From a virus, in the IMG/VR virus record IMGVR_UViG_3300048924_000326, positions 1-46,154 of that record: a DNA stretch of 46,154 bases; one strand, 5' to 3'. Of this stretch, positions 3,892 to 45,730 are shown piece by piece; within the stretch, counting starts at the first letter, position 1; every line of letters begins with the position of its first letter. The translations under genes were made by a program, and so were the position numbers. Under the pieces are notes generated by a model that was not told where the DNA came from, did not search any database, and saw only the letters and a list, made by a program, of their open reading frames with translations.

Positions 3892-3906
3892 ACTTGGCCT
3901 TTCTGA

Positions 3907-3994
3907 ACCACCGTGGTCCATTTTGTGTAATGTAAACCACCGTGGTCCATATTTCAATAGTCGATTGGATGGAGGGCCTTTGCACCACCGTGGT
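3907..3994. promoter_or_regulatory. Three ACCACCGTGGT operators between divergent RHH genes
   Basis: The 11-base near-palindrome ACCACCGTGGT (arms ACCAC and GTGGT around a single base) occurs exactly three times: 3907-3917, 3936-3946 and 3984-3994. The region is the divergent promoter of two RHH genes, and the first copy sits just upstream of the chosen start of the left gene. RHH repressors bind short palindromes of this kind as tandem dimers, so these are very likely their operators. A further exact copy at 45308-45318 lies inside a coding region. Confidence 0.8.
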
Positions 3995-9734: not shown

Positions 9735-9787
9735 CTAGCCCTCAGCTGCGAAGGCGCGCCGGTTCGATGCCGGCCCCCAGTGTGAGG
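9735..9787 (+). other. Degenerate tRNA-Leu/Ser-like 3' half
   Basis: The segment CGCCGGTTCGATGCCGGCC holds a perfect 5-bp T-stem (9758-9762 with 9770-9774) around the canonical loop TTCGATG. Upstream GGGAGTCTAGCCCTC and a short GC-rich arm resemble an anticodon arm and a class II variable arm. The acceptor end is not paired and CCA is absent, so it is not a working tRNA. It could be a fossil attachment site left by an earlier insertion. Confidence 0.5.
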
Positions 9788-9926
9788 ACCGAGTCGGATT
9801 TATCGATGCCTTTAGTCTGTCGTCTACGCTGTTGTGGGCAACGCGGCGAAATATTCCGATAAATGCCTCAGCGGACACTATGATCACAACCGAAATTGCT
9901 CTCATGATCTAGTGGAGGACAGGGAT

Positions 9927-10838
9927 ATGTACAGCTTGCTAATGACGGCGGCCGCGAATGCTTGGAACAACCCAACGTATGTGATGCCGACAGCACGCTT
10001 TCTTGAGCACACTATCCCAGCCGTCGCATCGAAGTTCGAGGCGTTGAGTCCTGAAATCATTCAAGAACTCAAAAATCTACCAACGCTCTTTGCTTATGAG
10101 AGTTTTGTCGGTGAGCCAGCTCGCGTCGGGCGGATTGTGGAAATTCGACAGCGCCAAGCTGGTCTGCATTTCACGTTTTCGCTTGACCCGCTTGTACCTC
10201 CAATTACTGCGGATCGACTTGAGCAACTCGCATTTGACTTAGACATCGACGCGACCGGCTATGAGTTCATGCGCACGCACTGGGCAATCAAGGATGTAGA
10301 CCTCGGTAGCGTGCTCATACGTGCGGGGGTTATTGCCAATGCTTCTTTGCAGCCTCAACCGCCACCTCCAAAAGTGTTCATCGCATACTCATGGGACTCT
10401 CCTGAGCATCTACAGTGGGTTGCTGGGCTGGCTGCAGCGTTGCGCCAACGAGGCATCGATGCAATTCTCGATCAATGGCATGTGCGACCCGGCCAAGATG
10501 TGGCCGCTTTCATGAACAGTGCTATTCGTGAAGCTGACAGGGTGTTGGTGATCTGCACAGAAGCGTATGTCCAGAAGGCGAATGATCGAACTGGCGGCGT
10601 TGGTTATGAGTACGTTGTTGCGACTGGAGAATTGATGGCCAACCTTGGGTCTTCTAAGTTCATCCCCGTGATTCGTCAGACCTCGATACCATATGTTTTG
10701 CCTGCTGAGTTGCGGTCGCGGCTGTACTTCAATCTGAGCGACAGTCGCAGCCAAGCTGGAGACTTTGATGCTTTAGCAAAGGAACTGCATGGAATTCGCG
10801 TGTCTGTTCCTCCGATTGGTGTGAATCCTTATCTTTGA
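9927..10838 (+). CDS. SEFIR/TIR-like domain protein, candidate defence sensor
   Basis: 303 residues from ATG 9927, which has GGAGG 8 bases upstream; a longer frame exists but lacks this site. Residues 1-140 form an unnamed domain (PEIIQELKNLPTLFAYE, then MRTHWAIKDVDLGSVLIRAG). A Pro-rich linker (QPQPPPPK) leads to a SEFIR domain at about 149-280: KVFIAYSWDSPEHLQWVAGLAAALRQRGIDAILDQW, then ADRVLVICTEAYV and YEYVVATGELM. SEFIR is the bacterial relative of TIR; some members hydrolyse NAD or make nucleotide signals. Glu228 in the last motif is a candidate catalytic residue. It lies 3 kb from a TIR gene and upstream of a SLATT-like gene, which supports a defence role. Activity is inferred. Confidence 0.85.
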   Translation: MYSLLMTAAANAWNNPTYVMPTARFLEHTIPAVASKFEALSPEIIQELKNLPTLFAYESFVGEPARVGRIVEIRQRQAGLHFTFSLDPLVPPITADRLEQLAFDLDIDATGYEFMRTHWAIKDVDLGSVLIRAGVIANASLQPQPPPPKVFIAYSWDSPEHLQWVAGLAAALRQRGIDAILDQWHVRPGQDVAAFMNSAIREADRVLVICTEAYVQKANDRTGGVGYEYVVATGELMANLGSSKFIPVIRQTSIPYVLPAELRSRLYFNLSDSRSQAGDFDALAKELHGIRVSVPPIGVNPYL

Positions 10839-11808: not shown

Positions 11809-12786
11809 CTAGACACGACCATTCGAAATGAGATTCCAGTAGTGGGCTCCTAAAGCCGTGAGCTTGCATGATTTGGAATTCATCGCCGCGAAGTACATAT
11901 GATCTTCACCTACTGGCTTAACCAAGTTCAGCCGGACGAGTTGTTGTAGCACCGCGAATTTGGCCGTATTGATCGGGTCAGGCGCGATGCCGTGATTTGG
12001 AGCTGGCGGCTGTGGTTCAAAGCTGGGGTCGAGCTTAAATTCAACACTCGGCTGATTGAAGTATTCGACGATTTTTCTTAGATTTTCTCGCTGTATCGGC
12101 GGCTCTACACTTCGCAACGACGTAAAGCGCTTGATATTTGTCTTGAATACCGGGCGTTGATCCCATTCTCCAAGCGATTGGTCGATGTGCGCATAAATGC
12201 TGCCAGGAGTTATATCGCCCAATAGGTTTGCAGCGCCTCCATTCAAGGCATCAACAAAAAGCGTTGTGAAAACCCCGGAGCCATTTTTTTCTGTCGCGTA
12301 TTCGTCTTGCCCGGATGCGGTAAGAATAGTCATTCCTTCGCTTAGGATGGATTTATCTTCGAATAAGCTTGGATTTCCCGCTTTTCCTGAGTGGCAGCTA
12401 TCTAAAACTATTACCTTGTTTTTTGCTTTCGAATTGAAGGCAATCTGAAGTAAATCGGTTAAAGGAAGCCCTTCATCTCCTTCATTTGCATCTGAGGTGA
12501 GTAAATATCCACCCGTTGCTTCGATGTGACCGTGCCCCGCAAAATAGAAGAGAGCAATTTCACTGTCCCCCTTAAATAGCTCGCTGATGCAGTCTTTTAA
12601 TGCTTTTCGGCTGATTTTGCTTTTTTCGTCAGTTGCAGTAAGTAATTTTGCGTCAAAATTCGGGCTGCCGTCTGAATGGCGCTGGAGTACCTGATTCACC
12701 GCGTGTGCATCATTTACGCATCCGAATAATTGCGCGCTAGGGGCGTCGTAATAGTCAATGCCGACGACAAGGGCTTTGCGGCTCAT
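11809..12786 (-). CDS. Caspase-family (C14) protease, probable type IV Thoeris effector
   Basis: 325 residues. Residues 1-215 form a caspase-like fold: RKALVVGIDYYDAP, then LFYFAGHGHIEATGGYLL with catalytic His85, and KVIVLDSCHSGKAG with catalytic Cys131; the following segment SEGMTILTASGQDEYATE is typical of bacterial metacaspase-like enzymes. The C-terminal 110 residues (after a Pro-rich linker, EPQPPAPNHG) may form a small winged-helix-like domain. The start overlaps the stop of the TIR gene by 4 bases (ATGA), so both are made together. In the described type IV Thoeris system a TIR-made cyclic ADP-ribose isomer activates such a protease, which then degrades cell proteins. Lower GC than the phage genes suggests separate acquisition. 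Confidence 0.9.
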   Translation of the reverse strand: MSRKALVVGIDYYDAPSAQLFGCVNDAHAVNQVLQRHSDGSPNFDAKLLTATDEKSKISRKALKDCISELFKGDSEIALFYFAGHGHIEATGGYLLTSDANEGDEGLPLTDLLQIAFNSKAKNKVIVLDSCHSGKAGNPSLFEDKSILSEGMTILTASGQDEYATEKNGSGVFTTLFVDALNGGAANLLGDITPGSIYAHIDQSLGEWDQRPVFKTNIKRFTSLRSVEPPIQRENLRKIVEYFNQPSVEFKLDPSFEPQPPAPNHGIAPDPINTAKFAVLQQLVRLNLVKPVGEDHMYFAAMNSKSCKLTALGAHYWNLISNGRV

Positions 12787-13199
12787 GATGATTTATTCTT
12801 GCCTTCACCCATAACCTGCGTGATGGCACTGCTAATTTTCGCCCAATTCCATTCGACTACCCGTGACCTTGGCAGACCAGTTGGTAAGGTACTGCTTGTT
12901 CCCGCCCCATCAACATACACTCCAAAAATTGGTACATTTTGAGAGTTTGCCATGTTAATTTCTTTGACTACGCCCGTTGCGGTGCTCATGCTCTTCCCAC
13001 ATAAGACAATGAGCATATTGGTTTTTGCGATCTTGGCTTTGATCAAGGCTTCCCACTCGGCTTGTGGGAGTGGCTCTTTTGACGACCAGTCTTGAATTGA
13101 AAAAGGTATGATAGATAAGTAGGTTTGGCCCGCAAAAAGAGTTTTTTCGGTGAAATTATTATCTGCGTCGAAACTAATAAATGCACGGGGATCTGCCAT
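12783..13199 (-). CDS. ThsB-like TIR domain protein (MTH538 type), type IV Thoeris sensor
   Basis: 138 residues from ATG 13199, preceded by GGAGGT at the right distance; a longer form to 13229 is less likely. It is a single TIR-like domain: RAFISFDADNN at the start, then NMLIVLCGKSMSTATGVVKEINMANSQNVPIFGVYVDG. Glu80 in VVKEINMA is where the catalytic Glu of TIR NADases is expected. The plan matches the short ThsB proteins of Thoeris, which make cyclic ADP-ribose signals when they sense phage. It forms a two-gene operon with the caspase-like gene. Base composition is low in GC. That it senses phage is inferred. Confidence 0.85.
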   Translation of the reverse strand: MADPRAFISFDADNNFTEKTLFAGQTYLSIIPFSIQDWSSKEPLPQAEWEALIKAKIAKTNMLIVLCGKSMSTATGVVKEINMANSQNVPIFGVYVDGAGTSSTLPTGLPRSRVVEWNWAKISSAITQVMGEGKNKSS

Positions 13200-13273
13200 C
13201 TGTCTACCTCCGGTTAATGAAGGAAGCATCGTACTCTGCTACGTTGGTGTTGGGCGCAAAATGTGAATTTCAA

Positions 13274-13293
13274 ATATCCCATAAATATGGGGT
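13274..13293. repeat. 20-base palindromic motif, near-copy at 22627-22646
   Basis: The core CCCATA-AA-TATGGG is a perfect 6-bp inverted repeat. Of 20 bases, 18 match the copy at 22627-22646. It sits 75 bases upstream of the TIR start, where the promoter of the TIR/caspase operon is expected, so it may be an operator. Confidence 0.5.
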
Positions 13294-13399
13294 GAAATTG
13301 TCTAGCCTGTTGGAGTGAGGTACTGTTGAACATAGTTGCAGTCATCACGACCGAAAAGCCCGTGTTCAAGCTTTCTAAAGATTCGCGCTAGAAAAGCGC

Positions 13400-20617: not shown

Positions 20618-20876
20618 CACCAACTCAATCAAGCACCTTGCTGGTCGGAGCACCTATAACGGCAGCAGCAAGGGAAGAGCGGGGAACTGTGAGGAAGTTC
20701 TGAGACACCCCGGCAGGCGGCGAAGGCAGCACCTGTGAACGAGAAGGCTACCGGGTCATGCAACGCGACGGGTCAGTCGGTTCATGTGAAGGCCCCCTCT
20801 AAGGAGGCTGGGTCTGTCCGCTCGGGATCAGTCTGTACTTGTAGAGGCAGTGTCTTAGTTAACAGGAGGTTCCCCA
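20618..20876 (+). other. Non-coding region with stem-loop before the late-regulator genes
   Basis: CCTTGCTG (20636-20643) pairs with CAGCAAGG (20666-20673) with a 22-base loop; no T-run follows. A frame is open through much of this gap but has no ribosome binding site. Further on, CCCTCTAAGGAGG is a small hairpin. No gene is called here; an origin or antitermination site is possible. Confidence 0.4.
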
Positions 20877-21851: not shown

Positions 21852-22424
21852 CTAGCGCAAGTTGAGCGTTTGTGTCTGAGAAAAGCAGATCACTTTGGCG
21901 GGCATGTTCTTTTGCTCTGACCATCGCCACTTGAACTCGGGGTTCTCTTGATCGTTTAAGCGCAGAGTCAACGCCGCGCCGCAGCCTCCGTAGTCACCGT
22001 TCTGGATGATGATCTCGATCTTGTTCGCTCCTCGATGAAGTTCTTTCTTGACATCGAAGGGTTCAGGCGTCTGTCCATATGCAACTCTGGCTATCTCCTT
22101 GTTGTTGACGCTCACGATCATGAGGTCGTCCACCGCCGATACCGCAAGCTCGGCAGTATCCAGATCGGAGAATCGACTCGGCCAAACTGGTGGGTGAGTT
22201 GTGAGCCATCCAGCATGAATTCCTAAAGCTAGTCCGGCAAGGAAGACGAATGCGCCTGGTCCTTTTAGACGAGGAATGCCGCTGTGCTCAATGGGCTGGG
22301 AAAGCCTGAACTCCAGACCAAAGGCGCCGAGTTTTTCCACAGTGAATGCTCGACTTAGGGCGAGGAGCAGCAATCCCGTTGCTGTAATAGTTGCCGCTAA
22401 CCAAGCTGCTTGCGCGCCGCTCAT
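21852..22424 (-). CDS. Membrane-anchored accessory protein, 190 aa
   Basis: Two hydrophobic segments at the N-terminus (AAWLAATITATGLLLLALS and GAFVFLAGLALGIHAGW), then an extracytoplasmic domain with a jelly-roll-like end (ANKIEIIIQNGDYGGCGAALTLRLN). It is antisense to the late operon, as is usual for a moron. No family recognised. Confidence 0.7.
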   Translation of the reverse strand: MSGAQAAWLAATITATGLLLLALSRAFTVEKLGAFGLEFRLSQPIEHSGIPRLKGPGAFVFLAGLALGIHAGWLTTHPPVWPSRFSDLDTAELAVSAVDDLMIVSVNNKEIARVAYGQTPEPFDVKKELHRGANKIEIIIQNGDYGGCGAALTLRLNDQENPEFKWRWSEQKNMPAKVICFSQTQTLNLR

Positions 22425-22626
22425 AGAAGAGGCTCCTCGTTTTCCTGCCGAAAAACTGTAGGCATGCGATGGGCAGAGTCTTGCCGCGCCTCAAGGCCGT
22501 TCCAGATCACGACTCCCTTGTCGCCGGCTCAGCGAGGCTCAAGATACGCAACTGCGCTCATCGAACGGTGGATTGCTTCATTCCCCATTGTCGTGGCCGT
22601 TATAGTGACCTTCGGAAACATTCCGC

Positions 22627-22646
22627 ATATCCCATGAATATGGGGG
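22627..22646. repeat. 20-base palindromic motif, near-copy of 13274-13293
   Basis: The core CCCAT-GAAT-ATGGG is an inverted repeat with 5-bp arms. It matches 18 of 20 bases at 13274-13293. It lies 70 bases before the truncated HNH copy, in a stretch without a gene. Confidence 0.5.
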
Positions 22647-22719: not shown

Positions 22720-22833
22720 ATGACACTCGCAACCCTGAAGCCCAGACTCACTATGTCCAGCCTGACCCGCACTCCAGTGCTGCAGACTAGGCGGCACGAG
22801 GTCGCTACTTCACGCTGTCGTACATGTCCTTGA
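22720..22833 (+). pseudogene. Truncated second copy of the HNH endonuclease gene
   Basis: The frame begins ATGACACTCGCAACCCTGAAG and encodes MTLATLKPRLTMSSLTRTPVLQTRR, clearly related to the start of the intact HNH gene at 24769 (MALTTLKPRLLAASLNRTPVLQTK). By eye about three quarters of the bases are identical to position 22795; after that the sequence is unrelated and soon hits a stop. The catalytic HNH part is absent. It is a remnant left by insertion of the accessory genes that follow. Confidence 0.8.
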
Positions 22834-23035
22834 CGCGCTTTACATTTTTGTTGTGACCTTCGCGGTTTTGTTCAGAAGTTCCGCCGGTCGTGACAGTGGT
22901 CGTTCCGCCAGACGTGCTGATGGTCGTGACCTGACCATCCGGGCCCTTGACCGTGGTAACCAGCGGAGCACTGGCCGCTTCGAGCGAAACCGACAGCAGC
23001 AAGGCGGCGAGAAGACCGTTGATTGTTGACTTCAT
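22805..23035 (-). CDS. Small secreted protein with signal peptide, 76 aa
   Basis: From ATG 23035, preceded by GGGGGA at proper distance. The signal peptide (MKSTINGLLAALLLSVSLEAASA) is followed by a Thr/Gly-rich repeat (VTTVKGPDGQVTTISTSGGTTTVTTGG) and a charged tail (NKNVKRVKDMYDSVK). A periplasmic location is likely. No function recognised. The stop lies at the junction where the HNH remnant ends. Confidence 0.65.
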   Translation of the reverse strand: MKSTINGLLAALLLSVSLEAASAPLVTTVKGPDGQVTTISTSGGTTTVTTGGTSEQNREGHNKNVKRVKDMYDSVK

Positions 23036-23245
23036 GTGTTCCCCCATGGTGATCTAGTTTGAAAGCTGGGCGCTCGGGCGGATGCTATCTACAGGCAGTT
23101 GAAGGCAGCATCCCCTTTTCGAAGGATGGCGCTGAGTTTCGATTGGTGTTGATCCGCAGGCTCAGATCGCAGATGCAAGCCCCGTGTCATTCATTTTGTG
23201 GTCCGGAGCCGGGCGAGAATCTCATCTTCCAATTGAGGAGGCGAG

Positions 23246-24768: not shown

Positions 24769-25089
24769 ATGGCGCTCACAACTCTCAAGCCCAGGCTCTT
24801 GGCCGCCAGTCTTAACCGGACTCCAGTGCTGCAGACCAAGGCCGGCACAGTGGAGCGCCAGCGTGGGCGGGTATGGATGGCGACCCGAGAGCGTGTAGCG
24901 CTTGCCCACGGCTACCGCTGCGCCCAATGCGGCGCCGTCTGGGTATCGAGTCGGGATCACATCGACCACATCGTCGAGTTGGCAGACGGCGGCACCAACG
25001 ACGACAGCAACCTGCAGCCTCTGTGCGATGTCCCATGCCACAAGGCCAAGACAGACGCAGAGGCGAGAGCAAGGGCAAGAGGCTACTGA
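24769..25089 (+). CDS. HNH endonuclease
   Basis: 106 residues from ATG 24769. The HNH core reads YRCAQCGAVWVSSRDHIDHIVELADGGTNDDSNLQPLCDVPCHKAKT: two zinc-binding Cys pairs, the catalytic His-x-x-His and the Asn-x-x-Leu-Cys-x-x-Cys-His. HNH proteins next to the terminase are needed for DNA packaging in HK97-like phages. It opens the packaging module. A truncated copy lies at 22720. Confidence 0.9.
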   Translation: MALTTLKPRLLAASLNRTPVLQTKAGTVERQRGRVWMATRERVALAHGYRCAQCGAVWVSSRDHIDHIVELADGGTNDDSNLQPLCDVPCHKAKTDAEARARARGY

Positions 25090-25238: not shown

Positions 25239-25517
25239 ATGGCAGGTGTCAAAGGACGCAGCGGTGGTGCCCGTCCGGGCGCCGGCCGCAAGCCGAAAAC
25301 CGTGGACCCGGCAACCACCGAAGACTCGAAAGAGTTCCTGACGATGGCTATGCAAGGTCTTTTGGACCCGAGCCCGGCTCAGTTGAAGGCCGCAATCGCG
25401 TTGCTGGGCGTCCAGCATGCCAAGAAGACTGAAGCGCCAAAGCCGGCGGTGCCTGAGCGCCCCGCTGGTGGCAAGTACGCGGTGCGGCAGGGCCCGCGCC
25501 TGGTCGCGAGCAAGTAA
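25239..25517 (+). CDS. Terminase small subunit (TerS-like)
   Basis: 92 residues from ATG 25239 (AAAAGG upstream). The N-terminus KGRSGGARPGAGRKPKTVDP is the Gly/Arg/Pro-rich segment common in small terminase and phage DNA-binding proteins. Then comes EFLTMAMQGLLDPSPAQLKAAIALLGVQH, a helical segment. It is directly before TerL, 4 bases away. It is shorter than most TerS proteins, so another terminase-linked role remains possible. Confidence 0.75.
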   Translation: MAGVKGRSGGARPGAGRKPKTVDPATTEDSKEFLTMAMQGLLDPSPAQLKAAIALLGVQHAKKTEAPKPAVPERPAGGKYAVRQGPRLVASK

Positions 25518-25520
25518 CTC

Positions 25521-27269
25521 GTGGAGTGGTCAACCGCCTGCGTCGATTGGGAACGCAGGATCGTGGCGCGCGAGAGCCTCATCACCTCGCCGCCGCTCTT
25601 CAAGGCGCAAGCGGATGAGGCCTGGGATGTTTTCGGCGGCCTGGTCCTGGTGGATGTGGCTGGTCAGCCGACCATGCGCGAAGCCTGCCTGCCTTGGGTG
25701 AAGGATTGGGTACGCGCGATCTTCGGATCCTATGACGCCGACCAAGGGCGCCGGCTGATCAACGAGTTCTTCTTCATGGTCAGCAAGAAGAACATGAAAT
25801 CGACCGCTGCGGCGGGGATCATGCTGACGGCGCTGGTGTTGAACTGGCGCCCGTCGGCGGAACTGCTGATCCTGTCGCCAACCAAGGAGATCGCGGACAA
25901 CAGCTACAAGCCGATCCGCGACATGATCAAGGCCGACGACGACTTGGCGGCCATGCTGAAGGTGCAGGACTACTTCCGCACCATCACCCACCGCGACAAC
26001 GCGGCGACGCTGAAGGTGGTTGCCGCAGACAGTGACACGGTTTCGGGCAAGAAGGCCTCGTTCGTCTTCGTTGACGAGCTGCACGAGTTCGGCAAGCAGG
26101 CCAAGGCCTCGAACATGCTGCTGGAGGCCACGGGTGGTCTGACATCGCGGCCCGATGGGTTCGTGATCTACGCCACCACACAGTCGGCCGAGCCGCCGGC
26201 CGGAGTGTTCAAGGACAAACTGAGCTACGCGCGAAAAGTGCGCGACGGGCTCATCAAGGATCCGCGCTTCCTGCCGGTGATCTACGAGTTCCCGCAGTCC
26301 ATGCTGGATGCGGGAGCGCACAAGGATCTGGCGAACGCCTACGTGACGAACCCGAACTGGGGCGCGTCGGTGGACATCGCGCGCATCACGCAGTTGCACA
26401 GCCAGGCGCTGGAGGGCGGCGAGAAGGACTTCAAGGAGTTCCTGGCCAAGCACCTGAACGTCGAGATCGGCATGAACCTGCGGTCTGACCGCTGGGCGGG
26501 TGCCGATTTCTGGGTGCCGCGGGCCGAGGTGCCCGGGTTGACGCTCGAGCAACTGCTCGACGAGTGCGAAGTGGTGGACATGGGAATCGACGGCGGTGGC
26601 CTGGATGACTTGCTGGGCGCCGCGGTCGCAGGACGGCGCAGGAAGGCTGAAGAGTTCCTCATCCCGGAGCACTTCGACGAAGAAACGAAAGCCGTTGTCC
26701 CAGCGAAGACTGTTCTGCGCAAGCGTTGGCTTTTATGGACCCGTGCATGGGCACATCCCTCGGTCCTCGAACGGCGCAAGGAGATTGCTCCACGCCTGCA
26801 GGACTTCGCCAAGGACGGCGACCTGATCCTGGTGAGCGCGATCGGTGAAGACGTGGCGGGAGTGGCTGATGTTGCCGCTCAGTGCGAGGCATCGGGTCTG
26901 CTGGACAAGATCGGCTGCGACCCGGCGGGGCTGGGCGGCATCCTGGATGCCCTTGTGGAGGCTGAGGTGCCTGACGAGAAGGTGATCGGCATCAGCCAGG
27001 GCTGGAAGATGACCGGCGCGATCAAGACGACCGAACGAAAACTCGCCGAGGGCGCGCTGATCCATGGCGGTCAGCCCCTGATGGCTTGGTCGGTCGGCAA
27101 CGCGAAGGTCGAGCCGAAGGGCAACGCCATCGTGATCACGAAGCAGGCCTCTGGCACCGCAAAGATCGACCCGCTGATGGCCACCTTCAACGCAGTGACG
27201 CTTCTGTCGCTCAACCCCGAGGCGCGAGGCAACTCCGTCTACGAAACCCGGGGCATCCGCTTCCTGTAA
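25521..27269 (+). CDS. terL: Terminase large subunit, HK97-like
   Basis: 582 residues from GTG 25521. The ATPase domain has a Walker A-like SKKNMKST (88-95), the deviant form of this family, and a Walker B FVFVDE (181-186), followed by coupling motif IYATTQSAE. The nuclease domain follows with DMGIDGGGLDDLLG (Asp ligands) and DKIGCDPAGLG. It drives DNA into the capsid and cuts it. It follows TerS and precedes the portal, the normal order. Confidence 0.95.
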   Translation: MEWSTACVDWERRIVARESLITSPPLFKAQADEAWDVFGGLVLVDVAGQPTMREACLPWVKDWVRAIFGSYDADQGRRLINEFFFMVSKKNMKSTAAAGIMLTALVLNWRPSAELLILSPTKEIADNSYKPIRDMIKADDDLAAMLKVQDYFRTITHRDNAATLKVVAADSDTVSGKKASFVFVDELHEFGKQAKASNMLLEATGGLTSRPDGFVIYATTQSAEPPAGVFKDKLSYARKVRDGLIKDPRFLPVIYEFPQSMLDAGAHKDLANAYVTNPNWGASVDIARITQLHSQALEGGEKDFKEFLAKHLNVEIGMNLRSDRWAGADFWVPRAEVPGLTLEQLLDECEVVDMGIDGGGLDDLLGAAVAGRRRKAEEFLIPEHFDEETKAVVPAKTVLRKRWLLWTRAWAHPSVLERRKEIAPRLQDFAKDGDLILVSAIGEDVAGVADVAAQCEASGLLDKIGCDPAGLGGILDALVEAEVPDEKVIGISQGWKMTGAIKTTERKLAEGALIHGGQPLMAWSVGNAKVEPKGNAIVITKQASGTAKIDPLMATFNAVTLLSLNPEARGNSVYETRGIRFL

Positions 27270-27280
27270 GGACCGACTGA

Positions 27281-28555
27281 ATGAAGATTCTCGACTTCTT
27301 CCGGCACTCGAATGCGTCGGAGGTGCAGTCGCGTCCGCGCGCGGAGGACTCGCAGGGGCATCAGTTCAGCGGCCTCGACGATCCGGCGCTGTTGGAGTAC
27401 ATCCGCGGCGGAACCACGGCCGGCGTGGATACGGCCCGTGACCGCAGCCTTCGGAACATGGCGGTGCTGCGTTGCGTGACGCTGATCTCCGAATCGATCG
27501 GCATGCTGCCGGTGAATCTGCAGAGCAGCGACGACAAGAAGCAGGTGCAAAGCGACAACCCGGCGCACCGGCTGCTGAAATACAAGCCGAACGATTGGCA
27601 GACGCCCATCGAGTTCAAGAGCCTCTTGCAACTGCGGGCCCTGCTCGACGGACAGTCCTTCGCGCGCGTGATCTGGTCGGGCAGCCGGCCGATCCGCTTG
27701 ATCCCGATGGATCGTGGTTCGACCAAGCCGCGTCTGAATGGCGCTTGGCAGATGCAGTACGACTACACGACGCCGGACGGCAATCAGATCACCCTGCCGG
27801 CGAAAGAGGTGTTCCACCTGCGCGATCTCTCGCTCGACGGGATCAACGGCATCTCGCGTGTCAAGCTGGGTCGCGATGCGTTGGAGCTGGCCGAGCAGGC
27901 GGAACGCGCGGCGTCGCGGACGTTCAAGACCGGTGTCATGGCGGGCGGTGCCATCGAAGTTCCGAAGGAGCTTTCCGAGAACGCCTACAACCGGATGAAG
28001 TCGTCGCTCGACACCGACTACACGGGCGCGGAGAACGCCGGCCGCTGGATGCTGCTGGAGGAGAGCGCGAAGGCCAACAAGTTCGCCAGCACGGCATCCG
28101 AGTCGCAGCAGATCGAGAACCGGAACCACCAGATCGAGGAAGCCGCGCGCATGTACGGCGTGCCCAGGCCCCTTCTGATGATGGATGACACGAGCTGGGG
28201 CAGCGGCATCCAGCAGTTAGCGATCTTCTTCATCCAGTACGGGCTATCGCATTGGTTCGTGTCCTGGGAGCCGGCAGCCGCACGCTGCCTTCTTCCCGAG
28301 GAGCAACTCGGACGCCTGCAATACAAGTTCAACGAAGGCGCGCTGCTGCGCGGCACGCTGGCCGACCAGGCTGCCTTCTTCTCCAAGGCGCTCGGTGCCG
28401 GCGGCCAAGCGCCCTGGATGTCGCAGAACGAGGTGCGTGAGCTGTCCGACCTCCCGAAATCTGCCGACCCGCAAACCGACGCACTGCGCAACCCGATGAC
28501 CCAGCCGGGCAAGCCGGTATCAAGGAACAACGATGAGCCTCCTGAACCTGCCTGA
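27281..28555 (+). CDS. Portal protein, HK97 family
   Basis: 424 residues. The N-terminus and core follow HK97 portal proteins: VLRCVTLISESIGMLPVNLQ, then VFHLRDLSLDGINGISRVKLGRDAL, and SESQQIENRNHQIEEAARMYGVPRPLLMMDDTSWGSGIQQLAIFF, the conserved GVPxxLL and WGSG stretch. A dodecamer of this protein forms the DNA entry channel. The C-terminus overlaps the protease gene by 23 bases in another frame. Confidence 0.95.
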   Translation: MKILDFFRHSNASEVQSRPRAEDSQGHQFSGLDDPALLEYIRGGTTAGVDTARDRSLRNMAVLRCVTLISESIGMLPVNLQSSDDKKQVQSDNPAHRLLKYKPNDWQTPIEFKSLLQLRALLDGQSFARVIWSGSRPIRLIPMDRGSTKPRLNGAWQMQYDYTTPDGNQITLPAKEVFHLRDLSLDGINGISRVKLGRDALELAEQAERAASRTFKTGVMAGGAIEVPKELSENAYNRMKSSLDTDYTGAENAGRWMLLEESAKANKFASTASESQQIENRNHQIEEAARMYGVPRPLLMMDDTSWGSGIQQLAIFFIQYGLSHWFVSWEPAAARCLLPEEQLGRLQYKFNEGALLRGTLADQAAFFSKALGAGGQAPWMSQNEVRELSDLPKSADPQTDALRNPMTQPGKPVSRNNDEPPEPA

Positions 28556-29369
28556 GATCCGGGCCGATCACCGCCTGGGCGTCGCACAGTTCGACGTTCG
28601 CCCTGATGCGCTCGAGCGCTGGCAGCCGGAGGTGCGCGCCGCAGTGGAAGGCGAGGCCTCCATCTCCATCTACGACGCCATCGGTGAGTCGTGGGATGGG
28701 CAGGGCTTCACGGCCAAGCGCATGAGCGCGGCACTGCGCAGCATTGGCGCCCGGGACGTGACGGTCAACGTCAATTCGCCCGGCGGCGACTTCTTCGAGG
28801 GTGTCGCCATCTACAACATGCTGCGCGAGCACAAGGCCAAGGTCACGGTGCGCGTGATGGGCCTTGCTGCTTCGGCGGCGTCCGTGATCGCGATGGCCGG
28901 CGACGAGATCCTGATGGGTGACGGCGCGTTCCTGATGGTTCACAACGCATGGGCCGTCGCCATCGGCAACCGCCACGATATGGCCGACGCAGCCGCACGG
29001 CTGGCACCGTTCGACGACGCGATGGCGCAGGTCTATGCCTCGCGCACCGGCCTGTCGAAGGCCGAGACCGCCACTTTGATGGACAAGGAAACCTGGATCA
29101 GCGCGGCGCAAGCGGTCGATGACGGCTTTGCCACTGGCCTGATCGAGCGTTCCGACATCACTCAAGACACCAAGGCGCAGGGCGGCAAGAAAGCCCTCGC
29201 GCTGATCGAAGCGTCGATGGCGCGTGCGGGGCATTCCCGAACCGCTCGCCGTGATGCCTTCAAGTCCCTTTTCACTGGCACGCCGGGCGCTGCCTCTGAA
29301 GCCGCCATGCCGGGCGCTGGCGAAACCGCAGCTTTGCTGCTTTCTCTCACCAACTCCCTCAAGGTCTAA
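28533..29369 (+). CDS. ClpP-like head maturation protease
   Basis: 278 residues. A ClpP-type serine protease: NSPGGDFFEGVAIYNML, then GLAASAASVIAMAG with Ser114, LMVHNAWA with His137, and an Asp near 161. It cuts the scaffold part of the capsid protein after assembly. The start lies inside the portal gene. The C-terminal 60 residues are variable and Ala-rich. Confidence 0.95.
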   Translation: MSLLNLPEIRADHRLGVAQFDVRPDALERWQPEVRAAVEGEASISIYDAIGESWDGQGFTAKRMSAALRSIGARDVTVNVNSPGGDFFEGVAIYNMLREHKAKVTVRVMGLAASAASVIAMAGDEILMGDGAFLMVHNAWAVAIGNRHDMADAAARLAPFDDAMAQVYASRTGLSKAETATLMDKETWISAAQAVDDGFATGLIERSDITQDTKAQGGKKALALIEASMARAGHSRTARRDAFKSLFTGTPGAASEAAMPGAGETAALLLSLTNSLKV

Positions 29370-29371
29370 CC

Positions 29372-30706
29372 ATGAAACGCACTCTCATTTCTCTCGCGGC
29401 TGTTGCCGCGCTCTCCGTCCTGGCCGCCGGTGCTGCCTATGCGTCCGCCGTCGATGCAGTCGCTGCCAAGGCTTCCGCGAATCCCGTCCCGCGCGGCCTC
29501 ATTGCCGTTCGCGCAGACGGTGGCCCTCCAGGTGACATCAAGGCCACGGTCGAAGCACTCAACAGGGCCTTCGCCACCTTCAAGGAGGAGCACACCAAGC
29601 AGCTCGAAGACATCAAGAAGGGCAACGCCGATGCGCTGCAGGCCCTGAAAGTCGAGAACATCAACGCGGACATCGCCCGCTTGCAGAGGGAGGTTGACGA
29701 CACCAATGTGAAGTTGGCAGCGGCCCAGATGGGCGCAGGGGCCGGCGGCAAGGCCGTGGCGGATGTCGAGTACACCGGTGCGTTCCGCGCGCACTTCAAG
29801 AAGGGCGATGTCCAGGCGGCGCTCAACAAGGGCGCGGACGGCGAAGGCGGCTACCTCGCCCCGGTGGAGTGGGATCGCACCATCACCGACAAGCTCGTGC
29901 TCGTCTCTTCGATGCGTCAGCTGGCCACCGTGCAGCCGGTGTCGGGGGCTGGCCTGACCAAGCTGTTCAACCTGGGCGGCACCGCATCGGGTTGGGTTGG
30001 CGAAACCGCGGCGCGTCCGCAGACTGCTACCGGCACCTTCGCTTCGCTCGGCTTCGGCTGGGGCGAGATCTATGCGAACCCGGCGGCCACCCAGCAGATC
30101 CTCGACGACTCGGCCATCAACCTCGAAGCCTGGCTCGCGGGTGAGGTGGAGACTGAGTTCTCCAAGCAGGAGGGCGCTGCATTCTTCTCCGGCGACGGCA
30201 CGAACAAGCCGTTCGGCATCCTCACCTACGTCACCGGCGGCGCCAACGCAGCGAAGCATCCCTTCGGCGCGATCAAGACCGTGAACAGCGGCGCAGCGGC
30301 TGCGATCACCTCGGACGGGATCGTTGACCTCATCTACGACCTGCCTTCGGCATTCACCGCGAACGCTGGATTTGCGATGAATCGCAAGTCGCAGGGCACG
30401 ATCCGCAAGCTGAAAGACGGTCAGGGCAACTACCTCTGGCAGCCGTCCTATGTGGCAGGCCAGCCTGCCACCCTGGCCGGCTTCCCGATCACCGAGGTGC
30501 CGGACATGCCCGACATCGCCGCCAATTCGGTGCCGGCCCTGTTCGGTGACTTCAAGCGCACCTATACGGTGTACGACCGTGTCGGCGTGCGCGTCCTGCG
30601 CGACCCGTTCACTGCGAAGCCCTACGTGCTGTTCTACACGACCAAGCGTGTTGGTGGCGGCGTTCACAACCCGGAGCCGATGCGCGCGCTGAAGATCTCG
30701 GCGTAA
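29372..30706 (+). CDS. Major capsid protein, HK97 family
   Basis: 444 residues. The capsid body begins near residue 133 (EYTGAFRAHFKKGD), with GEGGYLAPVEWDRTITDKL, and later AINLEAWLAGEVETEFSKQEGAAFFSGDG and TEVPDMPDI, all typical. Residues 55-120 form the coiled-coil delta domain that the protease removes (TVEALNRAFATFKEEH). Residues 1-26 are odd: MKRTLISLAAVAALSVLAAG, ending AYASA, which looks exactly like a Sec signal peptide with an AxA cleavage site. If the start is right, this is unusual for a cytosolic protein; it would be removed with the delta domain. Confidence 0.95.
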   Translation: MKRTLISLAAVAALSVLAAGAAYASAVDAVAAKASANPVPRGLIAVRADGGPPGDIKATVEALNRAFATFKEEHTKQLEDIKKGNADALQALKVENINADIARLQREVDDTNVKLAAAQMGAGAGGKAVADVEYTGAFRAHFKKGDVQAALNKGADGEGGYLAPVEWDRTITDKLVLVSSMRQLATVQPVSGAGLTKLFNLGGTASGWVGETAARPQTATGTFASLGFGWGEIYANPAATQQILDDSAINLEAWLAGEVETEFSKQEGAAFFSGDGTNKPFGILTYVTGGANAAKHPFGAIKTVNSGAAAAITSDGIVDLIYDLPSAFTANAGFAMNRKSQGTIRKLKDGQGNYLWQPSYVAGQPATLAGFPITEVPDMPDIAANSVPALFGDFKRTYTVYDRVGVRVLRDPFTAKPYVLFYTTKRVGGGVHNPEPMRALKISA

Positions 30707-30719
30707 GCAGGGGGACACC

Positions 30720-30884
30720 ATGAAACTAAGCAAACCGTTCAAGGGTGTCCCCGACGGGGAGATTTACCCGGTCGAGTATCAGGCGGGCGACGAATGTCCG
30801 CCGGAACTCGAAGCTGGTGCGCGTGAGCTCGACGCCTTGGAGCAGGGCGACGATAAGCAGCCCAAGGCGAAGGGCAAGGGCTGA
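30720..30884 (+). CDS. Small hypothetical protein, 54 aa
   Basis: ATG 30720 with GGGGG upstream; it starts 13 bases after the capsid gene. MKLSKPFKGVPDGEIYPVEYQAGDECPPELEAGARELDALE, then a Lys-rich tail. It resembles the small protein found after the capsid gene in many siphoviruses; its role is not clear. It ends 2 bases before the connector gene. Confidence 0.75.
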   Translation: MKLSKPFKGVPDGEIYPVEYQAGDECPPELEAGARELDALEQGDDKQPKAKGKG

Positions 30885-30886
30885 CC

Positions 30887-31366
30887 ATGCCCGTCATCAC
30901 GCTCGATCAGGCTCGTGCGCACCTGCGCGTGGGTGCAACGTACCCGCAGGAGCAGATCGGGCCGTACATGGCGGGCGCGGAAGACCATGCCTCGCAGTAT
31001 CTGAACCGAGTCATCTACGCCGATGCCGATGCGATGAACACCGCAATCGAGGCGCTGCCCGCAGCGTTGACCGCCGCACGCGTCGCCTACGAAGAGGCCA
31101 TCGCTGCGGCGGCGCTGATCGAGAACGCCAGCGATCGCCGCGACGCCGTGGACATCGCGGAGTCGCTGCTTCGTGCGACCCGGGCAGGCACGGCGCGGGC
31201 GCTCAATGGCGTCGTCGTCAATCCGAGCATCATCTCGGCGGTGCTGCTGATCCTGGGGCATCTGTTCGAAAGCCGGGAAGACGTGGTGATCGCCGCGACC
31301 GCGGTTGAACTCCCGCAGGGCGCTCGCGCGCTGCTTCGCCCCTACCGCCGGGTGATGATGCCGTGA
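30887..31366 (+). CDS. Head-tail connector protein (gp6-like)
   Basis: 159 residues. MPVITLDQARAHLRVGA and HASQYLNRVIY match the gp6/DnaT-like connector family, with the C-terminal VELPQGARALLRPYRR motif. It is the ring that attaches to the portal. It overlaps the next gene by 4 bases. Confidence 0.85.
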   Translation: MPVITLDQARAHLRVGATYPQEQIGPYMAGAEDHASQYLNRVIYADADAMNTAIEALPAALTAARVAYEEAIAAAALIENASDRRDAVDIAESLLRATRAGTARALNGVVVNPSIISAVLLILGHLFESREDVVIAATAVELPQGARALLRPYRRVMMP

Positions 31367-31692
31367 GAGCCGGCACGCTCAAGGACTGGATCACCATCCA
31401 GCAGGCCGGCACGGTGCAGGACGAACTCGGTCAGCCGATTCCTGGGTGGCCTGTGCTCGATTCGGTGTGGGCGGACATACGCTTTCTGTCGGGGCTCGAA
31501 TCCGCGCGCGCAGATTCGCCCGTGAGCATCGTCAAGGCCAGCATTCGCATCCGCCGGCGCATGGACGTGCTCGCGAGCATGCGTGTCGTGGACGACGAAG
31601 GCCGGATCTACGACATCAAGGCCGTCCTGCCGAACAAGCAAAGCCGCCAGTACATCGACCTGGTCTGCGAGACGGGTGCCAACAATGGCTAA
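31363..31692 (+). CDS. Head closure / head-tail joining protein
   Basis: 109 residues from a GTG overlapping the connector stop. RAGTLKDWITIQQAGTVQDELGQPIPGW, then VWADIRFLSGLES and ASMRVVDDEGRIYDIKAV, match the SPP1 gp16-like adaptor family, which plugs the head and forms the tail interface. Confidence 0.85.
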   Translation: MRAGTLKDWITIQQAGTVQDELGQPIPGWPVLDSVWADIRFLSGLESARADSPVSIVKASIRIRRRMDVLASMRVVDDEGRIYDIKAVLPNKQSRQYIDLVCETGANNG

Positions 31693-32164
31693 CGGTCGAG
31701 GCAACCCAAACGGGGGTGCTTTTCACATCGGCTTCGACACGTCAGGCGCCGATGCATGGCTGGACGGCATCCAGCGAGCCACAGAGGAATCGATTCGCCC
31801 CGCTGCCCAAGCAGGGGCCGAAGAACTCTACCTTGAAGCCCGACTGAGGGTGCCGCAGTCCGCGGAGCCGCATTACTTCTACGGCAAGAACAGCAAGTCA
31901 ACGGGAGTCCGCTACTACTTCGAGCCCGGCAGCCTGCGCAACGCGATCTACCAGGTCTATTCGAAGGACAACAGCGGAAAGGCGAGGGCGACGTATCACA
32001 TTGCGTGGAATCACCAGAAGGTGCCTTATGGCTTCATGGTCGAGTTCGGTACGAGCCGGGCTCCGGCACACCCGTTTCTGCGCCCGGCCTACGCGGCGCG
32101 TCGTGACTTCGCGATGGAAGTGGCTCGAGCCTATCTAGTCCAGGAAGTGAAGAAGGCGATATGA
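31685..32164 (+). CDS. HK97 gp10-like tail-head connector
   Basis: 159 residues from ATG 31685, overlapping the previous gene by 8 bases; a longer frame exists but the ATG here is at the normal place. The HK97 gp10 core is FGTSRAPAHPFLRPAYAARRD near the C-terminus, with EELYLEARLRVPQSA and an internal Lys/Ser-rich insert. It lies in the usual order before the DUF3168 gene. Confidence 0.85.
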   Translation: MANGRGNPNGGAFHIGFDTSGADAWLDGIQRATEESIRPAAQAGAEELYLEARLRVPQSAEPHYFYGKNSKSTGVRYYFEPGSLRNAIYQVYSKDNSGKARATYHIAWNHQKVPYGFMVEFGTSRAPAHPFLRPAYAARRDFAMEVARAYLVQEVKKAI

Positions 32165-32517
32165 CGGTCGAGGCAGATCTTCACAACGTGCTCGCCGCCC
32201 TGGTTGACGGCCGTGCATATCCCGATGTCGCGCCGGAAGACGCCGTGACGCCCTACATCGTGTACCAGCAGGTCGGCGGCACACCGATCGCATTCGTCGA
32301 GCGCGCCTTGCCTTCGAGGAAGAACGGTCGTTTTCAGGCTGCAGTGTGGGCCGCGACGCGCAAGGAAGCCGCAGCAATCGGCCTGCAGATCGAGAACGCG
32401 ATGCTGCTCGCAACCGAATTCCAGGTCGAGGTCGTCGGCGGCCAGATCGCCGACTACGACTCCGAGACAAAGCTGCGCGGCTCGCGCCAGGACTTCAGCA
32501 TCTGGTCCGACCGATAG
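32161..32517 (+). CDS. Tail terminator / DUF3168 protein
   Basis: 118 residues. MTVEADLHNVLAALVDGRAYPDVAPEDAVTPYIVYQQVGG, with FQAAVWAATRKEAAAIGLQIE, follows the DUF3168 family, the tail terminator that caps the tail tube in siphoviruses. It overlaps gp10 by 4 bases. Confidence 0.9.
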   Translation: MTVEADLHNVLAALVDGRAYPDVAPEDAVTPYIVYQQVGGTPIAFVERALPSRKNGRFQAAVWAATRKEAAAIGLQIENAMLLATEFQVEVVGGQIADYDSETKLRGSRQDFSIWSDR

Positions 32518-32624: not shown

Positions 32625-33272
32625 ATGAGTGCATCGCTCCCTAACGGCACGATCTTCTCGCTCGCCGCCAGCTACGCCGCTGCGATTCCGTTCACCATCT
32701 TGAGCAATGCCGCGCCCCCGCAGGCGACAGCAACTGCCCACGGCCTGACCAACGGCGACATCCTGGAGGTGACCTCGGGCTGGCCGCTGCTGAATGACCG
32801 TCCCGCACGCGTCGCCGGTTCGACCGCGAACACCTTCAACCTCGAAGGCCACGACTCCACTGATCTGACGCGCTTCCCTGCGGGCAGTGGCCTTGGCTCG
32901 GTGCGCAAGGTACTGACCTGGCAACAGATCTCGCAGGTGATGCAGAACGCATCGTCCGGCGGCGAACAGCAGTCGGTCGAGTGGGTCTACCTGGAAGACG
33001 GCATCGAGCGCAGCAAGAACACCTTCAGGAAGGCCAAGGTGCTGACGCTCACGCTCGCCGACGACGCCGCGCAGGCCTGGAACGCCGTGCTGCTGGCCGC
33101 CGACCAGGACGGCAAGAACCGCATCCTGCGCGCCCAACTGCCGAGCGGTGGTTCGATCTACTACAACGTCAATGTCGGTTTCGACCCCGAGCCGAAGCTG
33201 GATGCCAACCAGATCATGACCGTGACTGCGACCTTCCGCAGCCAAGGCCGCTTCATCCGCTACGCGAGCTGA
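32625..33272 (+). CDS. Tail tube protein
   Basis: 215 residues. LPNGTIFSLAASYAAAIPFTILSNAAPPQATATAHGLTNGDILEVTSGWPLL, then FRKAKVLTLTLADDAAQAWNAVLLAADQDGKNRILRAQLPSGG, and MTVTATFRSQGRFIRY. The second part matches the tail-tube family. It is made in many copies; the terminator upstream and the long leader suit high, separately tuned expression. Confidence 0.85.
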   Translation: MSASLPNGTIFSLAASYAAAIPFTILSNAAPPQATATAHGLTNGDILEVTSGWPLLNDRPARVAGSTANTFNLEGHDSTDLTRFPAGSGLGSVRKVLTWQQISQVMQNASSGGEQQSVEWVYLEDGIERSKNTFRKAKVLTLTLADDAAQAWNAVLLAADQDGKNRILRAQLPSGGSIYYNVNVGFDPEPKLDANQIMTVTATFRSQGRFIRYAS

Positions 33273-33273
33273 T

Positions 33274-33585
33274 ATGGCACGAATCAGTCTCAACCCCAAC
33301 CCGACCTTCAAGGCGATGGTCGAGATCTGCCGGCCTGGCCTCGAAGCCGAGAAGGTCGAAATCACGTTCAAGCATCGCACCCGCGATGAAATGGACGAGT
33401 TCATCAAGCAGATGGCCGAGATGTCGATCGAAGACCAGGTGATGGCCGTGGCCACCGGCTGGGAACTGGTCGATCCGTTCAACCTGGAGAACGTGAAGCT
33501 GCTCGCGCAGAACTACATCACGGCGCCCATGGCGATCCGCGACAAGTACATCAGCGAGCTCATCAAGGCCAAAGAAAAAAACTGA
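33274..33585 (+). CDS. Tail assembly chaperone, upstream product (gpG-like)
   Basis: 103 residues. RISLNPNPTFKAMVEICRPGLEAEKVEITFKHRTRDEMDEFIKQMAEMSIEDQVMAVATGW resembles the TAC family chaperone. It starts 1 base after the tail tube stop and lies before the tape measure gene, the place of lambda gpG. The end carries a slippery site (see 33576) that yields the longer form. Confidence 0.85.
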   Translation: MARISLNPNPTFKAMVEICRPGLEAEKVEITFKHRTRDEMDEFIKQMAEMSIEDQVMAVATGWELVDPFNLENVKLLAQNYITAPMAIRDKYISELIKAKEKN

Positions 33586-33899
33586 TCGAGCTGGCCAGGG
33601 CCATCTACACGCCCGACCCGACGCCGTATGAAGCGGCCGAGCTCGGGCTGACGGTAGAGGAGGCCAGCTTTTCGGTGGAATGTTGGCCCGAGCACCAGGC
33701 TGCCCTGTCGGTTTTCTACAAGCTGACCACCCAGTGGCGCACCGGCTTTGCCGGCGCAACTGGGCTGGACTATGGAGCGCTGCCGACGGTCTTCCGGCTG
33801 GCTGGCGTGCCTCGGGCGGACTGGGCGGCTCTCTTCGAAGACATCCGCGTCATGGAGCGCGGAGCGCTTCACTACATGCGCGAGCGGAACTCGCAATAG
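33274..33899 (+). CDS. Tail assembly chaperone, -1 frameshift product (gpGT-like)
   Basis: Made by -1 slippage at 33576-33582, giving about 208 residues. After the slip the reading is LIELARAIYTPDPTPYEAAELGLTVEEASFSVECWPEH, and it ends MRERNSQ at 33899. The downstream part (DUF1799-like) has no good start of its own before ATG 33675. In lambda the gpG:gpGT ratio sets tail length. That this works at a defined rate here is inferred. Confidence 0.85.
33576..33582 (+). promoter_or_regulatory. Slippery heptamer for -1 frameshifting
   Basis: A-AAA-AAC, the canonical X-XXY-YYZ heptamer, sits in frame just before the TGA stop of the chaperone gene. Reading in the -1 frame continues open to 33899, as expected for a programmed frameshift. 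Confidence 0.85.
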
Positions 33900-33925
33900 C
33901 CACCTTCGGGTGGCTTCTCTTTTTC
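33898..33925 (+). terminator. Hairpin between the chaperone and tape-measure genes
   Basis: AGCCACC (33898-33904) pairs with GGTGGCT (33909-33915) around loop TTCG, followed by TCTCTTTTT. The stop codon of the frameshift product lies in the first arm. It may be an attenuator within the late operon. Confidence 0.7.
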
Positions 33926-33935
33926 TGGGATACCG

Positions 33936-36794: not shown

Positions 36795-37387
36795 CACTTA
36801 TTGCGCTTCCGAGCAGCTTCAGGCCTGAATCGTTCTCGATGCGGCTGGCCACGATGCAGAGTGCATTCTCGGCACCTTTCGGTGGCAGCGAACAGGTGAT
36901 CGATCACCAGAACGATCGGTGGGAAGCGACGGCGAATCTGCCACGAGGACCACAAGAGCTGGTTGCCAGTCGTGAGGCATTCGTCAACGCGATGCGTGGT
37001 CAAACCAATACGGTCGCCCTGTATCACTTCGGCCGACCGGTTCCGCTTGGAACCATGCGTGGCACTCCAACGACGCTCTCATTTCCAGCAGCCAGGGGCA
37101 CTGACCTGGTCGTCATTCAGTCGATCGTTGGAGCCACGCTGCTGGCAGGCGACATGATCGGAATCAACGGTCTTTTGCTGCAGGTACGTCAGGATTGCCC
37201 AGCCGATGGCAGCGGCGCCATCTATGCCTATCTGGCCAATCGCTTGCGCGCCGACATTCCTCTGGGAAGTCCTGTTGTTTGGAATCGCCCGACGGCGCCA
37301 TTCCGGCTGATCTCGAAGCCGTCGTTTCTCTACGCGGCGGGCTATGCAGAGGGTGCCTCTCTGGATTTCGTGGAGGCCATCGTATGA
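36791..37387 (+). CDS. Distal tail / tail-tip protein
   Basis: 198 residues. It starts with an ATG overlapping the tape-measure stop. The N-terminus is ALPSSFRPESFSMRLATMQSAFSAPFGGSEQVIDHQNDRWEA, with a beta-rich remainder. Similar proteins follow the tape measure in lambda-like phages and form the tail tip. Family not named precisely. Confidence 0.7.
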   Translation: MTLIALPSSFRPESFSMRLATMQSAFSAPFGGSEQVIDHQNDRWEATANLPRGPQELVASREAFVNAMRGQTNTVALYHFGRPVPLGTMRGTPTTLSFPAARGTDLVVIQSIVGATLLAGDMIGINGLLLQVRQDCPADGSGAIYAYLANRLRADIPLGSPVVWNRPTAPFRLISKPSFLYAAGYAEGASLDFVEAIV

Positions 37388-45520: not shown

Positions 45521-45676
45521 ACGGCTCCCCTTGATGTCAGCTGAAATGATGCATCAACAATTTGCACGAGGCAATCCCTCGCGCTCGTGGGGTGGCTCCT
45601 CCGCATCGGGCGACAGCAAGCCGAGCAGATGCGCGTGCTCACCAAGTTACTAGCCGCGATGAGCCTCTCGACGAGA

Positions 45677-45730
45677 ACTCAAAATCCCCCACCGAAATGT
45701 GTGCAGGTTCGATTCCGGCCCCGGGGGCAC
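45677..45730 (+). other. Degenerate tRNA-Leu-like 3' half, possible attachment remnant
   Basis: ACTCAAAATCCCCC (anticodon loop with CAA and its 3' stem) is followed by a T-arm GCAGGTTCGATTCCGGC with one mismatched pair (position A:G), then CCCGGGG and GCAC. The upstream half of a tRNA is absent, and there is no CCA. It is what a prophage attachment site in a tRNA-Leu gene leaves behind, though imperfect. The first 14 bases recur at 7592. No gene is called in 45521-46040; the segment holds only this fragment, a terminator and a second T-arm. Confidence 0.55.

What the first reader, a model, noticed from the sequence alone, without database searches (positions are those of the whole stretch)
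13274..13293. Shared palindrome upstream of the TIR/caspase operon and 9 kb away
ATATCCCATAAATATGGGGT here matches ATATCCCATGAATATGGGGG at 22627 in 18 of 20 bases. Both copies are inverted repeats, both lie in gene-free stretches of accessory regions, and this one lies where the defence operon promoter is expected. A common regulator or a shared insertion mark could link two separate cargo regions of the prophage.
Basis: seen in the sequence. Interest (0 to 1): 0.55.

Follow-up and report, generated by a model that had tools for sequence, protein, structure and literature searches.

The report
Host regulator sites in prophage cargo
Two near-identical DNA palindromes in a bacterial virus's cargo regions, one just upstream of an anti-virus defence operon, look like docking sites for a conserved regulator of the bacterial host, so the host may decide when the virus-carried defence genes are switched on.

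Summary
The two palindromes are real. An 18/20 palindrome pair anywhere in the window is weak evidence (14% of shuffles); both copies being intergenic is not (0.2%). They are not the phage repressor's operator or an insertion mark.

Best reading: operators of a conserved host NarL/FixJ response regulator (RR). The motif TCCCATR-WW-YATGGGR has NarL 7-2-7 geometry. In 399 genomes of the family of Variovorax boronicumulans it occurs at 30 places (control 0), 10 of them beside orthologues of this RR. The RR is in 68 of 101 genomes of that genus; in 29 of 29 readable promoters examined a TCCCATGAA half-site lies upstream at a near-constant distance. Copies elsewhere sit in phase (steps of about 10 bp) with -10 hexamers. 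A sister prophage (96.6% DNA identity) has the site at the same cargo edge.

Copy 1 lies 78 bp upstream of a TIR-caspase (type IV Thoeris-like) operon. Copy 2 lies between a leftward membrane-protein gene and an HNH-gene remnant.

Weak points: copy 1 alone scores poorly on a matrix from the genus RR sites, nine TIR-caspase relatives lack the palindrome, and binding is untested.

The parts
13274..13293 (.). Palindrome copy 1 (core CCCATAAATATGGG, 13278-13291): proposed operator of a host NarL-type response regulator, 78 bp from core to the TIR start codon
   Evidence: identical core in the promoter of the response-regulator gene of L229
22627..22646 (.). Palindrome copy 2 (core CCCATGAATATGGG, 22631-22644): proposed operator; best match in the window to the matrix of response-regulator promoters
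   Evidence: 18.3; 12 of 1000 shuffles reach it
12783..13199 (-). TIR protein (ThsB_TIR), start codon at 13199 with GGAGG ribosome site
11809..12786 (-). Caspase-like protease (Peptidase_C14), overlaps the TIR gene by 4 bp; type IV Thoeris-like pair
13228..13233 (-). Possible -10 (TACGAT) for the TIR operon, ending 50 bp after palindrome copy 1; inferred
22602..22607 (-). Possible -10 (CACTAT) for leftward transcription, ending 29 bp after palindrome copy 2; inferred
21852..22424 (-). Leftward cargo gene, membrane protein with a weak galactose-binding-like domain match (below Pfam cut-off); candidate target of copy 2
22720..22798 (+). 5' remnant (duplicate) of the HNH endonuclease gene at the right edge of hotspot 2; its ATG is 75 bp after copy 2
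23108..23129 (-). Degenerate operator-like site, second-best matrix match in the window, 61-73 bp upstream of cargo gene 22805-23047; tentative
   Evidence: 13.2
22805..23047 (-). Small secreted cargo protein; its homologue in the sister prophage (55% identity) has the palindrome 56 bp upstream
13344..13372 (+). Conserved 29-bp element at the edge of cargo hotspot 1: the real recombination edge, 52 bp right of copy 1's core

Best explanation
The palindromes are operators of a host-encoded NarL/FixJ-family response regulator that forms a two-component system with a HisKA_3, 7TMR-DISM-like histidine kinase in the genus of Variovorax boronicumulans and its family. The phosphorylated regulator is proposed to bind the 7-2-7 inverted heptamers TCCCATR-AA-YATGGGG as a dimer and to activate sigma-70 promoters whose -10 ends about 29, 40 or 50 bp further on (helical steps). 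In the prophage, copy 1 would put the TIR-caspase operon, and copy 2 the leftward cargo gene (ancestrally the cargo/HNH slot), under that host system. Shown by computation: the motif, its link to the response-regulator gene, its place in a sister prophage, its spacing to -10 hexamers at other copies. Inferred: binding, activation rather than repression, the -10s of the two window copies, the signal sensed.
For: Family search: TCCCATRWWYATGGGR at 30 places in 23 of 399 genomes, control 0; 10 of the 30 lie beside orthologues of one NarL/FixJ response regulator, Response_reg + GerE in the two tested, closest solved relatives ChrA, VraR, DevR, NarL. Found from the protein side: orthologue in 68 of 101 genomes of the genus, and 29 of 29 readable loci (of 30 fetched) carry TCCCATGAA plus a degenerate second half upstream of its start, 1-4 mismatches against 4-7 for two control patterns. 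Matrix from those sites: copy 2 is the best place in the window, 12 of 1000 shuffles. Genus search: 31 places in 23 of 101 genomes, control 2; 8 of them 73-76 bp before a conserved 41-aa gene, close to the 78 bp of the TIR gene. -10 spacing: 11 of 32 TANNNT hexamers end at 29-30 bp and 6 at 40-41; 17 of 21 correctly anchored regulator promoters have TATGCT ending at 40; copy 2 has CACTAT at 29, copy 1 TACGAT at 50. Sister prophage in G861 (96.6% over 7.2 kb) has the palindrome between a homologous cargo gene and the HNH gene. 7-2-7 geometry as in NarL (PMC4549865 passages).
Against: Copy 1 scores only 7.4 on the matrix from the genus regulator sites; 832 of 1000 shuffles have a place as good. 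Nine TIR-caspase relatives lack the palindrome. The stretches held of the closest IMG/VR relatives have no full copy. 17 of the 31 genus places look coding or unclear on my reading. The family pattern was modelled on the window copies and genus hits, so only the gene it sits beside, not the match itself, is independent evidence. 33 of 101 genus genomes lack a match to the regulator at E 1e-55. The -10s of the window copies are weak single hexamers.
Confidence: 0.62

Rival explanations
1. The palindromes are 7-2-7 sites of a different LuxR/NarL-type regulator (a paralogue, or one carried by a mobile element) that shares the same half-site, and the link to this regulator gene is indirect.
For: NarL-type regulators are numerous (the first look gives 43-144 candidates per genome among those listed) and can share half-sites; several small-gene operons with the site are not next to the regulator.
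Against: 10 of 30 family places and 29 of 29 readable genus promoters belong to this one orthologue group.
Confidence: 0.18
2. Copy 2 is a regulator site but copy 1 is an unrelated local palindrome (or an operator or hairpin of its own module) that resembles it by chance.
For: Copy 1 is not significant on the genus matrix; its nested hairpin with outer arms is private to it; relatives of the TIR-caspase pair lack it; a palindrome pair anywhere is found in 14% of shuffles.
Against: The same core stands in the regulator promoter of L229; both-intergenic chance 0.22%; spacing to the start codon (78 bp) is close to the 73-76 bp of the 41-aa gene promoters.
Confidence: 0.12
3. Insertion or recombination mark that delivered both cargo modules.
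For: Both copies lie within about 50-75 bp of conserved hotspot edges.
Against: The edges themselves are other sequences; the prophage stretches with the 13344 edge lack the palindrome; chromosomal copies sit in promoters.
Confidence: 0.04
4. Operator of the prophage's own repressor.
For: A phage with a CI-like XRE gene at 15.5 kb could control morons.
Against: No copy within 3 mismatches in the immunity region; the motif occurs in chromosomal promoters with no phage genes noted in the stretches read.
Confidence: 0.03

Closest known systems
E. coli NarL 7-2-7 operators (napF, yeaR, engineered narG -89 site TACCCCTAAAGGGGTA; PMC4549865, passages read)
   Same: Inverted heptamers separated by 2 bp; response regulator with receiver and GerE (LuxR-type) domains; kinase of the HisKA_3 type; activation from about -40 to -49 upstream
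   Different: Heptamer TCCCATR instead of TACCCCT; partner kinase with a 7TMR-DISM-like region instead of a nitrate sensor (NarX recalled); targets unknown or small secreted genes and prophage cargo
Type IV Thoeris (TIR + caspase-like protease; Rousset et al. 2025 as cited in PMC12847820, passages read)
   Same: Adjacent TIR and caspase genes in one operon
   Different: Here carried as prophage cargo with an operator that nine other loci of the pair or its caspase lack; chemistry untested
Locally encoded regulators of immune operons, e.g. CapK/CapS (PMC13373217, abstract and outline)
   Same: Transcriptional control of a defence operon
   Different: There the regulator is encoded next to the operon; here it would be a distant host two-component system

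Membership tests
NarL/FixJ-type 7-2-7 operator | Two inverted heptamers separated by 2 bp | tested here: met
   TCCCATA-AA-TATGGGG and TCCCATG-AA-TATGGGG (geometry compared with PMC4549865)
NarL/FixJ-type 7-2-7 operator | A receiver + GerE regulator present in the host lineage and associated with the site | tested here: met
   10 of 30 family places beside it; 68 of 101 genus genomes; domains
NarL/FixJ-type 7-2-7 operator | Site in the regulator's own promoter at a fixed position | tested here: met
   29 of 29 readable loci, half-site plus degenerate second half
NarL/FixJ-type 7-2-7 operator | Window copies placed for activation relative to a -10 | tested here: inconclusive
   Copy 2 CACTAT at 29, copy 1 TACGAT at 50; single weak hexamers
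NarL/FixJ-type 7-2-7 operator | Copy 1 matches the matrix of genus regulator sites above chance | tested here: not met
   Score 7.4; 832 of 1000 shuffles as good
NarL/FixJ-type 7-2-7 operator | Binding by the phosphorylated regulator | not testable with these tools
   needs EMSA or footprint
Type IV Thoeris | TIR (ThsB-like) gene in one operon with a caspase-like protease | tested here: met
   ThsB_TIR and Peptidase_C14, overlapping genes
Type IV Thoeris | N7-cADPR production and caspase activation | not testable with these tools
   biochemistry needed
Phage repressor operator | Copies in the immunity region | tested here: not met
   none within 3 mismatches
Insertion or recombination mark | Palindrome at module junctions in related prophages | tested here: not met
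   junction is the 13344 element; palindrome absent from those prophage stretches

The most novel reading that the evidence does not exclude
This prophage family recurrently equips its cargo slots with the operator of one conserved host two-component system, so that lysogen-protecting genes, including a suicidal TIR-caspase defence, are armed by a host-sensed signal rather than by phage-encoded or defence-encoded regulators. Besides the window and its sister prophage (L191), a further relative (G009) has operator-like sites with a -10 at offset 29 before two secreted-protein cargo genes (L112 3599, L109 13952).
Probability: 0.33. Interest if true: 0.75.

Novelty: new member of a known kind. 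Interest (0 to 1): 0.6.

Why it matters
How hosts and prophages time dangerous defence genes is largely open. If right, this gives a concrete, testable wiring: a conserved host two-component system, its operator, and prophage promoters (one of them for a TIR-caspase operon) that have captured it. It also supplies a readable promoter signature (7-2-7 site plus a -10 at 29, 40 or 50 bp) for finding the rest of the regulon.

Tried and rejected
Phage-repressor operator: no matching sites in the immunity region. Insertion mark: the real edges are other sequences. Part of the Thoeris system itself: absent from nine relatives. Terminator or hairpin: only copy 1 folds better than shuffles and neither is followed by a T-run; the terminator palindromes are others. 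Widespread phage operator: exact 19-mer 0 hits, 16-mer 13 single hits, 11 inside ORFs by a greedy ORF call that also counted window copy 2 as inside an ORF. General order-wide motif: 17 two-mismatch hits in 399 genomes, no more than the roughly 30 I estimated by hand for uniform bases. Searches for relatives of two cargo proteins found none. Near-identity DNA searches of phages and plasmids with window 1-25000 found none. A terminase search of 369 class genomes found only the genome used as centre.

Errors of mine, kept in view: the matrix was contaminated by start codons that resemble the motif (the start of the regulator gene itself); one search replaces it. In one search, 8 of 29 rows are mis-anchored in the same way, so I count 17 of 21. 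An earlier count said 30 places for the genus search; recounting the table gives 31.

Literature: the listings in the held PMC library showed, by title and start of abstract, nothing on this regulator, this motif or a host two-component system acting on prophage defence cargo in Variovorax; I claim nothing beyond those searches.

Full report
OBSERVATION. Similarity alone is not remarkable: the window has 14 such 20-mer diagonals, and a palindrome pair this alike turns up in 14-20% of shuffles. Requiring both to be intergenic drops this to 0.22% of 1823 shuffles, a post hoc but useful figure. The other matching intergenic palindromes in the window look like ordinary terminators.

SETTING. The window is an IMG/VR record of a phage with typical terminase, head, tail and replication genes. 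Copy 1 lies between a leftward TIR (ThsB_TIR) and caspase (Peptidase_C14) pair and a rightward gene. The TIR start codon with a good ribosome site is at 13199, 78 bp from the palindrome core. Comparison with relatives shows that 13344 is the sharp edge of a cargo hotspot: a 29-bp element is identical in other prophages and everything to its left differs. Copy 2 lies in a second hotspot, 75 bp before a truncated duplicate of the HNH gene's 5' end (22720) and upstream of the leftward gene 21852-22424.

HOST. A flank gene of one relative (ntrY-like; label recalled) is 87% identical to its counterpart in Variovorax boronicumulans (G004). In the same genus, genome G861 carries a sister prophage 96.6% identical over window 25263-32505 and 94.8% over 32630-37028, with the same 13344 edge. 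The window's host is therefore very probably in that genus (inference).

WHAT THE PALINDROME IS. In 101 genomes of the genus the symmetric motif CCCATRWWYATGGG occurs at 31 places in 23 genomes, against 2 for the reversed control. My reading of the neighbourhoods: 14 are promoter-like, of which 8 stand 73-76 bp before a conserved 41-aa secreted-looking protein gene, 2 before a 54-aa gene (143-144 bp), 2 are similar promoters in G830, 1 lies beside a receiver-type regulator and an export gene, and 1 is in the G861 prophage; 17 are coding or unclear. In 399 genomes of the family, TCCCATRWWYATGGGR occurs at 30 places in 23 genomes, control 0. Ten of the 30 lie beside one orthologous gene, a NarL/FixJ response regulator (Response_reg and GerE in the two tested). 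One of these (L229) has exactly the core of window copy 1. In several of the loci read the regulator is followed by a kinase-like gene; the G863 one matches HisKA_3 and, below its cut-off, 7TMR-DISM.

INDEPENDENT CHECK. The regulator's orthologue was then sought by protein: 68 of 101 genus genomes have it. Of 30 loci fetched, 29 were readable, and all 29 have TCCCATGAA plus a degenerate second half at a near-constant distance upstream, mostly 59-62 bp before the start codon (1-4 mismatches to the full palindrome; two control patterns 4-7). A matrix from these sites ranks copy 2 first in the window (18.3; 12 of 1000 shuffles reach it) and a degenerate site before cargo gene 22805-23047 second (13.2); copy 1 is third with 7.4, not significant. 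That is the main weakness for the defence operon.

PROMOTER GEOMETRY. Across 88 distinct site-directions, TANNNT hexamers end 29-30 bp (11 of 32) or 40-41 bp (6 of 32) after the palindrome, against a background of 0.30 per offset. The regulator's own promoters have TATGCT ending at 40 in 17 of 21 correctly anchored rows. Steps of 10-11 bp suggest an activator on one face of the helix, centred at about -42 and -53. Copy 2 leftward has CACTAT at 29, and its counterpart in the sister prophage has CACGAT at 29 (19 of 32 flank bases shared). Copy 1 towards the TIR gene has TACGAT at 50, one further step. Single hexamers of this kind are weak evidence. The published NarL site TACCCCTAAAGGGGTA has the same 7-2-7 layout, and napF and yeaR have such sites at -40 to -49 and -38 to -47 (PMC4549865, passages).

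IN THE PHAGE FAMILY. In the sister prophage the palindrome lies between a homologue of cargo 22805-23047 (55% identity) and the HNH gene. Another relative (G009) has operator-like sites with TAGATT at offset 29 before two secreted-looking protein genes (L112 3599, matrix 20.5; L109 13952, weaker). Nine loci with relatives of the caspase elsewhere (L083-L087, L138-L141) lack the palindrome, so the site belongs to this genomic setting, not to the defence system.

MECHANISM PROPOSED. A host signal activates the kinase, the regulator binds as a dimer, and transcription of the cargo rises. Binding, direction of effect and signal are inferred. The type IV Thoeris label rests on domain content; the biochemistry (N7-cADPR activating the caspase) is as cited in PMC12847820 (passages).

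VERDICT. Confidence is 0.62 that the palindromes are operators of this host regulator, lower for control of the TIR-caspase operon than for copy 2.

Noticed in passing
7592, 9751-9777, 45669-45725; also L006 5471 and 6511, L105 5405, L107 9385, L109 7036, L116 5713: tRNA-Leu(CAA)-like 3' fragments, starting at the anticodon stem, recur between cargo genes of hotspot 1 and near the right end of the window: possible relics of attachment sites used in cargo exchange.
   Followed up: partly
13344-13372: 29-bp element identical at the edge of hotspot 1 in 6 other IMG/VR prophage records (twice in one), with a different cargo to its left in each.
   Followed up: yes
22720-22798 and 24769-24850: Duplicated 5' end of the HNH gene, which shows that cargo was inserted within or beside it.
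   Followed up: partly
20634-20756 and 2931-2999: Rfam matches: Betaproteobacteria-1 RNA and sar antisense RNA.
   Followed up: no
3902-3960: Two copies, 29 bp apart, of AACCACCGTGGTCCAT, an operator-like palindromic repeat upstream of the left, minus-strand gene block.
   Followed up: no
9834-10838: Second TIR-type gene, a bSEFIR defence protein by PADLOC (E 3e-63), in the same hotspot.
   Followed up: no
L156 141-1516 (genome G863): A type VI retron (HTH_VI and RT_VI) stands directly upstream of a perfect copy of the palindrome, which leads to a 54-aa gene.
   Followed up: partly
L220 and L221 (genome G985, contig 20): Three full palindromes within 31 kb, all with a -10-like hexamer at offset 29, near genes other than the response regulator: a possible regulon cluster.
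   Followed up: no
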